Below, in pieces: positions 47,271 to 53,735 of a DNA stretch of 64,000 nt. The stretch comes from Puniceicoccaceae bacterium (GTDB lineage Bacteria; Verrucomicrobiota; Verrucomicrobiia; Opitutales; Coraliomargaritaceae). Within the stretch, counting starts at the first letter, position 1. The number at the start of each line of letters is the position of its first letter. The notes beneath the pieces are model-generated. The model was given only the letters and a program-made list of their open reading frames with translations. It was not told where the DNA came from and did no database searches. The stretch is from the NCBI GenBank assembly GCA_018402305.1, contig JAGYJE010000003.1:1-64000 (forward strand). Reading direction: 5' to 3'. The position numbers were made by a program, and so were the translations under genes.

Positions 47271-47322
47271 GATGGAGCCACCTGTCGGGACTGAACCGAC
47301 GACCTGATGATTACGAAATCAA
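47271..47322. repeat. attL: partial copy of the tRNA-Thr 3' end
   Basis: GATGGAGCCACCTGTCGGGA, then the rest of the T-arm and anticodon-arm sequence up to AAATCAA, repeats 53685-53735 with three small differences (CTG for TCG, and one extra G). It covers the 3' half of the tRNA-Thr gene and nothing of the 5' half, so it is an attachment-site duplication and no second tRNA gene. Confidence 0.85.
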
Positions 47323-47392
47323 GGATCTTAAAAGGGCCTTTCGTTGATTATCAACGTTTTATGACGCAGGGAGTTGCACGGAAACGCCCCAC

Positions 47393-47411
47393 TTTGGTTA
47401 CTTTGGTTACT
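47393..47411 (+). repeat. Putative integrase arm-type sites, left
   Basis: TTTGGTTACT occurs twice (47393-47402 and 47402-47411), starting 70 bases inside attL and 13 bases before the integrase start. The same sequence occurs near the other end at 53597-53617. Confidence 0.55.
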
Positions 47412-47423
47412 AAACGCGACCAT

Positions 47424-48640
47424 ATGACAAAAAGAGCAAACCCTCACCCCGATTTTCGTCGCCGAGCGCAATTTTATGCTCGAGTATCCCGGCGACAATC
47501 GCACCAAGCGGGCGCCGGGAGCAGCGATTTTCAAAACGAAAACCGCCGCCGAGACTGAGAGGCGGGAACGACTGCAGCGCAGCGCGGCGATGGGGCACCG
47601 AAGGGCGGCAGATCTGAGCGGACCTCGCCACCGACGCAGCGAAAGCCGCCGCGAGCGCCTGAAGGCGCAGGCCTGACGTGACCCTCGCGCGGTTGGCCTG
47701 CGATCACATCGAGGCGCAGCGCTGCTGGAGTTTCGGTTTCATCTGCCGAGCTTGGGCGATTTTTATCGAGTCGCGAGAACACTTTGCTGATTCGCACAGA
47801 AGGACGTCGGACCGGATCGGGCGAAAAATTCTGCCCGCCTTCGAGTGCACCGAACTTGCGCGACCTCGACGCCGAGCGAATCGAGCGAGCTTTCAAAACA
47901 ATTTTTGGCTGCATCGAGTTTCAATTTGAGCCTGCGCGCGATCAGCCCTGCTTTGCGTTAGCGAAGGCAAAAATTGGATTGATGAAACCCTTGCTCTGCG
48001 AATTCCAAAGCGCGAAACCGGACGCCGCAACTATTACAGCCCTATTCGCGGTCGCGGAGGCTCGCGCAGTGATAAGCGCCTGCCGGGATTGGACCGCGTG
48101 ACCTTTCTTCTGATCAATAGGAATTGGCGAGTCGATGCGACTGACGCGCTCGCAGCGGTTTGCGTCCAGCTTTTGTAAATATTGACCTGTTTGAGGTCGA
48201 GCGGGCTTTGGGGTGGGGAAGATTTTGATTTAGCGAGGGGATTGATTTTCGTCTCAACCTGTGGCGCAAAACCGACAGGTCAAAAAGGGAAATTCAAACG
48301 TTGGCTTCACCTTTGCGATTTGGTTCGAATTGCAGTGCCGCCGGAGCCACGCACCGCTCGGTTTGCCCGGCGAATTGAAGAAACAAGTCGGCCCGCATGA
48401 AAGCGGGGACGCCCTGACGGGCAGGGACCAGCTTCGAAGCTTTTGCGTCGTATCATTTGCGCGAATTTGGGGACGTAAACCACGATCGTCGATTTGGGGG
48501 CACGAAAACCTCGGCGGTTTTATTCACGAATTACCGGGCCGCGGTTAGCGCAGGGACGCGGCGCAGTTTTGGCAAATCCGGACCACCGAGCGAATCCTGT
48601 CGAGATTTTTGCCGAGCGATTTTAGGGGAAAATTTGCGAG
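47424..48640 (+). pseudogene. Tyrosine recombinase/integrase, frame-broken
   Basis: ATG 47424 starts MTKRANPHPDF; other frames then give MLEYPGDNRTKRAPGAAIFK, DLDAERIERAFKTI, LRW-like GWEDFDLARGLIFVST, ALR..SFASYH-like text, and GHENLGVLF or GTKTSAVLFTNYRAAVSAG, with AAQFWQIRTTERI at the end. The catalytic His of GHE and the Tyr of FTNYRA are readable. It would integrate and excise the element at tRNA-Thr. All frame breaks lie left of 49711, in the suspect block. Confidence 0.72.
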
Positions 48641-49420
48641 CTGAGGTCCCGGCGGCTTGCTCACCGGGGCGGCAGTCGTTGCGACGGAATCGAGGCCTGC
48701 GTGAGTTTCGTTTGTATCGAACGAAGCCGACCCTGTGTGGGCGCTGAGTGAAACACGGCAGCGCGCATTTGTGCTCATCCAGAGCGCGCACAGAGCTGAG
48801 GCGCTGGAATTGCCCGAGCTTGCCGAAGCGCTCACCGGAAATCGGTCGAGCGCTATCCCGGTGAGCAAAACGATACGAGGCTTGTTCAGGCGCGCTCGAG
48901 GCGCTCATTTCGGAAACAAGCGACCATTACTCAGTTACGCGGACGGTCGCACCGAGATCATTTCGAACCCGAACTGGGCAGGTCGTTCGAGCGATTGGCG
49001 GCGAACGTTTTGCTCAAACGGCAAACGCCGCGTTGCTCGTTTATGGGCCGGACGGAAAAATGATTTAAACGAAGCGAGAGCTCGTAGGAAGTGGGGCGAT
49101 GGGACAATTCTCACCCAAACAACCATCAAAACACCAAGAAAAATCATCTTCAGTCCGCACGCGACCCGTCTTATAGATGGCAGGTCGTTTTCCTCTCGCT
49201 TTGTGTCATTGTTCCTGATACATTGAAATGATTTTCAATGCGACTTTTTGGCCTTGTCGCCTGGGTGAGCTTCGCGAGGTCAAGATTTCAGATTCGAGAA
49301 ACGCCGAAACTCTCGAAACGCCGTAGAACTTTGCGGGTAAACATAACTGGTACCTACATAGTGCTCAGAAAAGTGATGCGGGTTTGATGGCGGCAGCGGA
49401 AAAAGGTTTTGAGTCGAGGC
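48641..49420. other. Unresolved part of the integrative element
   Basis: No convincing gene. A plus-strand open frame 48735-49226 exists, but its composition changes midway. A second frame over 48960-49150 gives a plausible-looking piece (AQTANAALLVYGPDGKMI, then ELVGSGAMGQFSPKQPSK), suggesting one small gene broken by an indel. Its product is not recognised. Confidence 0.4.
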
Positions 49421-49618
49421 ATGACAGACAAAACCTTTGAAAAATACGTTTCGAGAAAGCTGGAGGCGGCGGCCCGGGGCTGGGGATTTCGATTCGAAAA
49501 CTCGACTACTGATCGAGGCGAAATTATCCCGGCTGCGAGATTGCTTGCGCTGCCTTCGAATCAACTCGAAAGGACGCTGGTGTCAGAGGCACTGAAGGCG
49601 AAAGGGACCGCGCGATGA
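49421..49618 (+). CDS. Small protein upstream of the primase-helicase
   Basis: A 65-residue reading frame, MTDKTFEKYVSRKLEAAARG onward, ending ALKAKGTAR. GAG lies shortly before the ATG. Its TGA overlaps the ATG of the primase-helicase gene (ATGA at 49615-49618), which supports its reality. It is helical and basic with no recognised family; a small DNA-binding regulator is only a guess. It lies at the edge of the indel-rich block, so residues may be wrong. Confidence 0.45.
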   Translation: MTDKTFEKYVSRKLEAAARGWGFRFENSTTDRGEIIPAARLLALPSNQLERTLVSEALKAKGTAR

Positions 49619-53092: not shown

Positions 53093-53517
53093 CCGTTGCC
53101 GAGGCACTGGGCGATTTCGTCGAGGACGACAATATTTTCTCGATGGCGCCGATAAAAATGGGCGCACTCGCGCGAATTCCTGAATTCGCTCGCGGAGGAT
53201 GGGAGCGCGGCGACCCGACGGTTGAGGAGTGTCTCGCATTTTTCAACTCAGCGGCGCCGGACGCGTCCGCGGAGCGCTTCGCACAGATCGAGGCAGAAAT
53301 GCCGAATCGCCGCGACGAGTTTGCGAAATGGGTGCTCGGGCAAATCGACTTTCTGCCTTCAATCGCCGCCGAGGACTGGGCCGTTCCGATTAGCAGACTC
53401 GCATGGCAGAATCATGGAATCGACTTTCACGACCTCCTCGAAACGCCTTGCGCGCTCGTAAAAATTTTCCACGAGGAGGCCGGTCGCCGCGGGCTCAAGG
53501 CCGGGTCGAAAAATTGA
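53089..53517 (+). CDS. Protein of unknown function, last gene of the element
   Basis: A 142-residue acidic protein starting MTVAEALGDFVEDDNIFSMA. It contains GWERGDPTVEECLAFFNSAA and WVLGQIDFLPSIAAEDWAVP. No transmembrane segment or recognised motif; mostly helical. It is coupled to the preceding 59-residue frame, and its stop lies 80 bases before the right arm-like repeats. Small acidic proteins near the attachment site are often accessory to excision or to phage interference, but nothing here shows which. Confidence 0.62.
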   Translation: MTVAEALGDFVEDDNIFSMAPIKMGALARIPEFARGGWERGDPTVEECLAFFNSAAPDASAERFAQIEAEMPNRRDEFAKWVLGQIDFLPSIAAEDWAVPISRLAWQNHGIDFHDLLETPCALVKIFHEEAGRRGLKAGSKN

Positions 53518-53596
53518 CGCGGGCGCATTTTTGCTAGAAGTCATCAACAAGTCGCTTCGAGAGAGGCGGCTTTTTTTTGCGCCCAAGAAGGGTATC

Positions 53597-53617
53597 TTTG
53601 GTTACTTTGTGGTTACT
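53597..53617 (+). repeat. Putative integrase arm-type sites, right
   Basis: TTTGGTTACT at 53597-53606, then TTTGTGGTTACT at 53606-53617, 67 bases inside attR. They match the pair near the left end in sequence and in distance from the attachment core. Confidence 0.55.
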
Positions 53618-53651
53618 GAAAAAAAGAGAGGCTGCGCGGATTAGCCAACAA

Positions 53652-53682
53652 AAAGCCCTTACTCGTTGAAAATAAGGGCTTT
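53652..53682 (-). terminator. Terminator after tRNA-Thr, carried by the integrative element
   Basis: On the minus strand, AAAGCCCTTA and TAAGGGCTTT form a perfect 10-bp stem followed by TTTGTT. It begins 5 bases after the encoded CCA of tRNA-Thr and lies inside the element, so integration keeps tRNA transcription ended. Confidence 0.8.
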
Positions 53683-53684
53683 AG

Positions 53685-53735
53685 GATGGAGCCACCTGTC
53701 GGGATCGAACCGACGACCTGATGATTACAAATCAA
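53685..53735. repeat. attR within the tRNA-Thr gene
   Basis: The 51-base sequence shared with 47271-47322 covers the 3' part of the tRNA from the anticodon arm to just past CCA. Integration here leaves a complete tRNA gene. Confidence 0.82.

What the first reader, a model, noticed from the sequence alone, without database searches (positions are those of the whole stretch)
47271..53735. A 6.4-kb integrative element at tRNA-Thr with its own replication module
Seen: a 51-base copy of the tRNA-Thr 3' half at the left, the complete tRNA at the right, an integrase readable across frames, and a primase-helicase gene. Inferred: the element can excise and replicate. No structural, packaging or conjugation gene is recognised, so it resembles a phage satellite or an integrative plasmid. 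I know of no described family in Verrucomicrobiota with this gene order.
Basis: partly seen in the sequence, partly recalled or inferred. Interest (0 to 1): 0.75.

Follow-up and report, generated by a model that had tools for sequence, protein, structure and literature searches.

The report
Phage-satellite-like element at a tRNA gene
A small piece of mobile DNA sits in a tRNA gene of an uncultured bacterium, carries an integrase and a likely replication start site, and belongs to a widespread group, for which I found no description, that looks like parasites of bacterial viruses.

Summary
The element is real. It is bounded by tRNA-Thr(TGT) and a copy of its 3' half; contig C75 of the same genome carries the left end with a 51-base exact copy, an open 408-aa integrase frame and a small HTH gene. 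The integrase "across frames" is best read as an assembly defect: window ~38.45-49.71 kb is an indel-rich copy of C75 with broken GlyRS and RuvB. The span may join two element variants near 49.7 kb. Behind the primase-helicase lies a likely origin: GGTGCAA iterons around a 48-bp perfect palindrome. Relatives keep this layout with other iteron words: at least four repeats in 40 of 61 loci against 14 of 531 control windows. Helicase relatives occur in 13 of 372 genomes of the order (own included) and at 56 loci of a named collection (49 in Verrucomicrobiota). Nine of 63 distinct related loci are bounded by tRNA repeats (5.9-10.9 kb); four of these nine have small-terminase matches of unequal strength. 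Best reading: a lineage of PICI-like phage satellites that I found no description of. The window's copy has no convincing terminase gene; helper, induction and packaging are untested.

The parts
47271..47322 (-). attachment-site copy: 3' half of tRNA-Thr (left end of the element)
   Evidence: 94% match to the tRNA-Thr 3' part, 6,414 bases from the right copy; 51-base exact copy on C75
47393..47411 (+). two TTTGGTTACT direct repeats, likely integrase arm sites (left)
47403..48600 (+). tyrosine integrase, frame-broken in the window; open 408-aa frame on C75 (L010 1373-2599 -)
48606..49347 (+). gene downstream of the integrase, frame-broken in the window; on C75 it starts in the integrase stop (4-nt ATGA overlap), 258 aa; no family match
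49421..49618 (+). small HTH protein, perhaps an excisionase; frame-broken in the window, 67 aa on C75
   Evidence: HTH_17 4.3e-4 (below Pfam cut-off); PHROGs: terminase small subunit phrog_57 1.7e-4, recombination directionality factor phrog_7506 5.9e-4, excisionase phrog_66 1.2e-3
49619..51537 (+). primase-helicase (BT4734-like/PrimPol-type N domain, AAA_25 helicase, C-terminal part); N-terminal part frame-broken in the window before ~49712
51517..51668 (.). candidate replication origin: seven GGTGCAA iterons, four of them in a 48-bp perfect palindrome (51621-51668)
51728..52303 (+). ORF 191 aa, unknown
52316..52750 (+). ORF 144 aa, unknown; possible HTH by eye only
52913..53092 (+). ORF 59 aa, unknown
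53089..53517 (+). ORF 142 aa, unknown; last ORF before the tRNA
53597..53617 (+). TTTGGTTACT-type repeats (one exact, one with a mismatch), likely integrase arm sites (right)
53687..53762 (-). intact tRNA-Thr(TGT); right attachment core 53685-53735
38450..49712 (.). indel-rich stretch, noisy copy of C75 (with an insertion at 45943-47232); explains the broken integrase, HTH gene and primase N-terminus
   Evidence: left limit approximate (38420-38920)

Best explanation
A small integrative element of a lineage of phage-satellite-like elements spread over Verrucomicrobiota. Shown from sequence: it sits between a tRNA-Thr 3'-end duplication and the tRNA, with an integrase, a gene overlapping the integrase stop, an HTH gene, a primase-helicase and an iteron/palindrome site just 3' of the helicase gene. 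Inferred: integrase, arm sites and HTH protein excise it as a circle; the primase-helicase binds the iterons, perhaps through its C-terminal part, opens the AT centre of the palindrome and replicates it; a helper phage packages the DNA and carries it to new cells, where it re-integrates in tRNA-Thr.
For: Att repeats and arm-like repeats. Open integrase, HTH gene and primase N-terminal part on C75. A second element in the same genome (C8): helicase part 59% identical, Toprim-like N domain, beside a tRNA-end-like sequence read by eye. 13 of 372 genomes of the order, own included; 56 loci in a named collection, 49 with names that belong to Verrucomicrobiota. Of 63 distinct related loci, 35 have an integrase-profile hit and 9 a tRNA-end repeat on both sides of the helicase, at seven tRNA types. 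Small-terminase matches in 4 of those 9: L040 phrog_83 6.9e-17, L108 phrog_57 7.2e-10, L121 3.1e-7, L048 5.2e-5; a major head protein homologue in another, L123 (1.3e-11). Origin layout: at least 4 copies of a 7-mer just 3' of the helicase gene in 40 of 61 loci against 14 of 531 control windows; AT-centred perfect palindrome in 37 of 113 loci against 3 of 806 random windows. Large terminase and a Mu-like protease gene on contig C9 of the host genome, a possible helper prophage.
Against: The window's own copy has no convincing terminase, capsid or interference gene: its four right-hand ORFs have no Pfam or PHROGs match below E 0.1 and no tblastn match better than E 0.18 in the loci then held. 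The phrog_57 family also catches the 67-aa HTH protein of C75 (1.7e-4), so weak phrog_57 matches such as that of L048 may mean only an HTH domain. 54 of 63 distinct related loci showed no tRNA repeat (many are cut by contig ends), 28 of 63 no integrase hit, and 21 of 61 no iteron cluster, among them the att-bounded L040 and L049. L113 has no integrase hit and L121 a repeat of only 19 bases. L123 has a head protein, so some members may be degenerate prophages. Host-prophage stretches share only chance-length matches with the element. The two halves of the window's element may come from two variants.
Confidence: 0.57

Rival explanations
1. An integrative plasmid-like element that excises and replicates by itself but has no phage partner; it spreads by transformation or by riding other carriers.
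For: In the window copy only integration and replication genes are recognised with confidence; weak helicase matches in 18 Bacteroidales plasmid records, none covering 80% of the query.
Against: Small-terminase matches in 4 of 9 att-bounded relatives, the strongest 6.9e-17; origin placed as in PICIs (PMC6092414 passages); the helicase domain also occurs in 52 IMG/VR contigs, though which of these are phages was not determined.
Confidence: 0.27
2. A defective prophage that has lost its structural genes.
For: Shared helicase with 21 phage records at low identity, none covering 80% of the query; L123 keeps a head protein.
Against: A compact int-HTH-primase plan recurs at several tRNAs in several genera at 6-11 kb with variable right ends, as expected of a selected element class rather than independent decay; no large terminase on the element contigs that could be checked.
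Confidence: 0.11
3. A dead remnant: integrase, HTH gene and primase N-terminus were really destroyed, in a decayed duplication of about 12 kb.
For: The window sequence as deposited has broken frames from 38.5 to 49.7 kb, and mismatches show no codon-position bias in the larger genes, as neutral decay would also give.
Against: Open copies of these genes and of RuvB and GlyRS lie on C75 of the same genome; small indels are very frequent beside mismatches (BLAST: 338 mismatches, 247 gap openings in 8,274 columns; MAFFT: 469 mismatches, 197 indel runs); the stretch begins in a gene with related copies elsewhere and stops ~230 bases before the end of C75.
Confidence: 0.05

Closest known systems
PICIs (phage-inducible chromosomal islands), Gram-negative type (PMC6092414, passages seen)
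   Same: Integrase, replication module, no recognised structural genes, att-bounded, origin immediately 3' of the replication gene with two iteron sets flanking an AT-rich stretch; some members carry terS.
   Different: 6.4 kb rather than 12-15 kb; long palindrome with alternating-AT centre; no recognised interference gene and no convincing TerS in the window copy; helper unknown.
PICMIs of Vibrionaceae (PMC10803314, passages seen)
   Same: Minimal content (int, gene overlapping int by ATGA, HTH/AlpA-type gene, primase), about 6 kb (my arithmetic from 8 copies in ~49 kbp), no terS.
   Different: Site is tRNA-Thr, not fis; primase domains are BT4734-like_N and AAA_25, not the DUF3987/DUF5906 of the PICMI model; host phylum.
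P4-like satellites (PMC8628076, search listing with start of abstract only)
   Same: Integrase plus replication protein; helper-dependent life style if our reading holds.
   Different: P4 marker genes are recalled and were not tested one by one; none was named in the Pfam and PHROGs scans of the element.

Membership tests
PICI | Integrase, replication module and master regulator in conserved order | tested here: inconclusive
   Integrase and primase-helicase met; only a small HTH protein, below its Pfam cut-off, could stand for a regulator
PICI | Origin immediately 3' of the replication gene: two iteron sets flanking an AT-rich stretch | tested here: met
   51517-51668; in relatives 40 of 61 vs 14 of 531 controls. 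Sequence layout only; function not tested
PICI | No phage structural or lytic genes | tested here: met
   None recognised among the ORFs scanned, apart from a weak terminase-small-subunit match (1.7e-4) of the 67-aa HTH protein, which is not a structural gene
PICI | Size 12-15 kb | tested here: not met
   6,414 bases between att copies; att-bounded relatives 5.9-10.9 kb
PICI | Attachment site never used by prophages | not tested
   A different small element uses the same tRNA-Thr in G034; prophages at this site were not surveyed
PICI | Phage-dependent induction, interference and packaging | not testable with these tools
   Needs infection or induction experiments
PICMI | DUF3987/DUF5906 primase and insertion at fis | tested here: not met
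   Pfam gives BT4734-like_N and AAA_25; site is tRNA-Thr
PICMI | Gene overlapping int by 4 nt (ATGA) | tested here: met
   C75 and C8 copies have it; in all 10 of 37 loci with an integrase hit, 27 without; no chance expectation was computed
Prophage | Large terminase, portal and capsid genes | tested here: not met
   None recognised in the window copy; large-terminase matches of the own genome are on contigs C9, C6 and C67
Integrative mobilisable or conjugative element | Relaxase or secretion genes | tested here: not met
   No such Pfam family among the ORFs scanned at E up to 1

The most novel reading that the evidence does not exclude
A new, Verrucomicrobiota-wide lineage of minimal phage satellites whose replication start is a plug-in code: each element carries its own iteron word around an AT-centred palindrome, read by the C-terminal part of its own helicase, with word and reader evolving together, so that several such elements can share one host without cross-talk.
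Probability: 0.35. Interest if true: 0.78.

Novelty: new variant of a known kind. Interest (0 to 1): 0.62.

Why it matters
The phage satellites in the papers I saw come from a few bacterial groups. A large family in Verrucomicrobiota would extend the phenomenon to another phylum, known here almost only from metagenome-assembled genomes, give markers (helicase profile plus palindromic iteron site) to find more, and offer a natural set of origin words and readers for studying how replication specificity evolves. It also shows that an apparently broken integrase in an assembly is best explained by sequence quality.

Tried and rejected
Rejected as less likely: real pseudogenisation of the integrase. 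The viral-contig scans with the window primase, the 144-aa ORF and the 142-aa ORF, and the genome-contig scan with the window primase, found no relative. Structure predictions of the 144- and 142-aa ORFs were too poor to use (mean pLDDT 48.3 and 48.4), so no fold search was run. No solved structure matched the helicase by sequence. The missing end of the C8 element was not found in the genome. Host-prophage stretches versus element DNA: only chance-length matches. The C8 primase N domain was translated in a wrong frame in a script; those lines were not used, and the protein was scanned in its open frame. In the first repeat scan the L009 row is invalid (contig end) and was dropped before the controlled count. 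Dropped before counts as duplicates: L103, L107, L117, L133, L137, L151. Other loci are not all independent (L104, L131 and L132 are from one MAG; L114 and L121 from another; L112 and L113 share an iteron word and 70% core identity). For the family sweep of att-bounded elements I gave 74 of 111 called ORFs, leaving out short or antisense-looking ones.
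Full report
Observation. The window is G000:C23:1-64000, from a 3.1-Mb genome in 76 contigs, 90% complete. tRNA-Thr(TGT) lies at 53687-53762 on the minus strand. A copy of its 3' half lies at 47271-47322. Between them are a split integrase, a primase-helicase gene and small ORFs. The genome search with this tRNA gave one full-length match; the two next best are this copy and one on contig C75, which shares 51 bases exactly with window 53685-53735.

The broken integrase is best read as an assembly artefact. Contig C75 matches window 37920-45942 (91%, 247 gap openings in 8,274 columns) and 47233-49941 (87%, 108 gap openings in 2,831), the match ending at C75 base 1; window 45943-47232 is extra, an IS4-type insertion. 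In the indel-rich part, mismatches fall evenly on the codon positions in the larger genes (RuvB 30/34/33, GlyRS 24/33/22, integrase 44/55/44; the short primase start is uneven, 8/22/13), and 2-3% of bases are missing in RuvB, GlyRS and the integrase. C75 has open frames for these genes and for the element's left genes. The indels start between about 38420 and 38920, near the end of a transposase-like gene (window 37581-38555) with related copies on C75 and at window 61882-62017, and stop at 49712; beyond that, to 49941, there are no gaps but 22 substitutions. So the clean right part looks like a natural variant of the C75 element, and the window's element may be a composite of two variants; this is not resolved. 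An uncorrected long-read patch is the simplest reading; I have no reads to prove it.

Anatomy. Left to right: att copy; TTTGGTTACT repeats; integrase (phrog_1 7.8e-30 on C75); a gene that on C75 starts in the integrase stop (4-nt ATGA overlap); a 67-aa HTH protein (HTH_17 4.3e-4, below the Pfam cut-off; in PHROGs terminase small subunit 1.7e-4, recombination directionality factor 5.9e-4, excisionase 1.2e-3); primase-helicase; a candidate origin at 51517-51668; four ORFs without match below E 0.1; TTTGGTTACT-type repeats; tRNA-Thr. The window holds 13 copies of GGTGCAA, which is not more than chance gives (9.1 expected; 13 of 100 shuffles reach it), but 7 of the 13 lie in the 152 bases 51517-51668, four of them in a 48-bp perfect palindrome with centre TATATA.

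A family. The primase-helicase is found in 2 of 43 genomes of the family (own included, the other at 1.6e-4) and, at E <= 1e-20, in 13 of 372 of the order (own included). A profile scan of named genomes gave 56 loci, 49 with names that belong to Verrucomicrobiota and 7 to Bacteroidota (grouping from knowledge); a viral-contig scan gave 52. Three contigs titled Opitutales (L103, L133, L151) have the lengths of contigs found in the order search, so the order is probably Opitutales; one title conflicts (L117, titled Akkermansia muciniphila, has the length of a contig found in that search). Of 69 loci fetched for this (13) 63 are distinct; 35 have an integrase-profile hit. Nine have a tRNA-end repeat on both sides of the helicase: L040 (Met, 55 bases), L048 (Asn, 46), L049 (Gly, 23), L105 (Leu, 53), L106 (Leu, 39), L108 (Cys, 33), L113 (Val, 26; no integrase hit), L121 (Ala, 19), L123 (Ala, 79). 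L040 also has two short extra matches to its tRNA. In L040, L048, L105 and L108 the integrase is at the end away from the intact tRNA, as in the window. A second element of the same genome, on C8, shares 59% identity in the helicase part but has a Toprim-like N domain: the primase part seems exchangeable.

Satellite signature. Small-terminase matches occur in four of the nine: L040 phrog_83 6.9e-17, L108 phrog_57 7.2e-10, L121 3.1e-7, L048 5.2e-5. Because phrog_57 also matches the HTH protein of C75, the weaker ones are less sure. L123 has a major head protein homologue (phrog_283 1.3e-11). L049 has collagen-like proteins that match tail-fibre families, and L048 a protein that matches tail and head-decoration families; one of the 74 swept ORFs has immunoglobulin domains. 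Such repeat matches are of low specificity. In a large-terminase search of 12 genomes, 7 matched. For the nine elements: five genomes (of L048, L105, L108, L121, L123) had none; those of L040 and L049 had weak matches on other contigs; for L106 the better match is on a contig of another length (20,473 against 30,630 bases) and a weak one is unplaced; for L113 two are beyond its contig's length and one is unplaced. The PHROGs sweep of 74 of 111 called ORFs listed 25 of 87 matching families; the Pfam sweep listed all 24.

Origin layout. In 61 loci with enough sequence, the 300 bases 3' of the helicase gene hold at least four copies of one 7-mer in 40, against 14 of 531 control windows 3' of other ORFs; at least six in 25 against 0. 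A perfect palindrome with arms of 7 or more and an A/T centre lies within about 500 bases in 37 of 113 loci (viral contigs included), against 3 of 806 random windows of the same loci. The repeat word differs between elements; GGTGCAA recurs in L104, L131 and L105. Of 113 loci 75 had at least four copies in a slightly shifted window; in 58 of these after dereplication, C-terminal identity beyond what core identity predicts goes with iteron similarity (rho -0.20 over 1,653 pairs; permutation p 0.0005). Counter-examples exist (L045 and L124 share a word with 13% C-terminal identity). Relatedness was only partly controlled, so this is suggestive. That this end of the helicase is a winged helix is my reading of the sequence, not a test.

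The site in relatives. Of the 13 other genomes of the genus searched, I fetched the neighbourhood in 8. G026, G027, G032, G035 and G036 have an intact tRNA-Thr with no second copy or integrase-profile hit in the 3.9-10.5 kb fetched on its 3' side. G033 has no second copy but an integrase-profile hit (8.3e-10) within 1 kb. G034 has a different element at the same tRNA-Thr (62-base partial copy, integrase, HTH_17 protein 4.1e-7, Toprim-like protein). In G031 the tRNA lies at a contig end. The other five were not resolved. None of the eight shows the left flank of C75 in the stretch fetched, so a strict empty site was not shown.

Comparison with the literature. PICI passages (PMC6092414): integrase, replication module, regulator, specific att sites, no structural genes, 12-15 kb, origin just 3' of the replication gene with two iteron sets around an AT-rich stretch. 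PICMI passages (PMC10803314): minimal satellite with int, an int-overlapping gene needed for excision, AlpA and primase, without terS. Two papers hold both 'phage satellite' and 'Verrucomicrobi'; their passages do not describe such elements, and one says satellites were deliberately left out of its analysis. Other papers were seen as search listings only. Ten paper searches, several showing only the top of longer lists, gave no description of Verrucomicrobiota satellites; the library lacks most subscription journals and preprints.

Verdict. A real element of a widespread PICI-like lineage for which I found no description; the satellite life style is supported by relatives, not by this copy.

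Noticed in passing
window 38450-49712: About 11 kb of indel-rich sequence with broken RuvB, GlyRS, response-regulator and other genes that are open on contig C75; the join to the left part runs through a gene with related copies and may be chimeric.
   Followed up: yes
window 45943-47232: IS4-type (DDE_Tnp_1) insertion beside the left att copy, absent from C75; its frames look broken too.
   Followed up: partly
window 37581-38555 and L010 10219-11355: Related transposase-like genes (Y1/RAYT type, named from memory by the look of the sequence), a likely cause of the assembly join.
   Followed up: no
L009 1-4300 (G000:C8): Second element of the same genome beside a tRNA-end-like sequence (CAT anticodon region by eye; ARAGORN finds no full tRNA there), cut off by the contig end; helicase part 59% identical, Toprim-like N domain.
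   Followed up: partly
L188-L189 (G000:C9, about 5-28 kb): Prophage-like region with a large terminase and a Mu-like protease gene; possible helper.
   Followed up: partly
L173 4232-12309 (G034): Different small element at the same tRNA-Thr in a same-genus genome, with another integrase 51% identical to the C75 one just outside.
   Followed up: partly
L123 1235-12093: Att-bounded 10.9-kb element with a major head protein homologue; no large-terminase match in its genome; perhaps a capsid-altering or capsid-making satellite.
   Followed up: no
L181 5613-5672 (G034:C13): Another partial tRNA-Thr copy, about 7 kb from a weak large-terminase match (1.9e-5) on the same contig; perhaps a prophage using the same site.
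   Followed up: no
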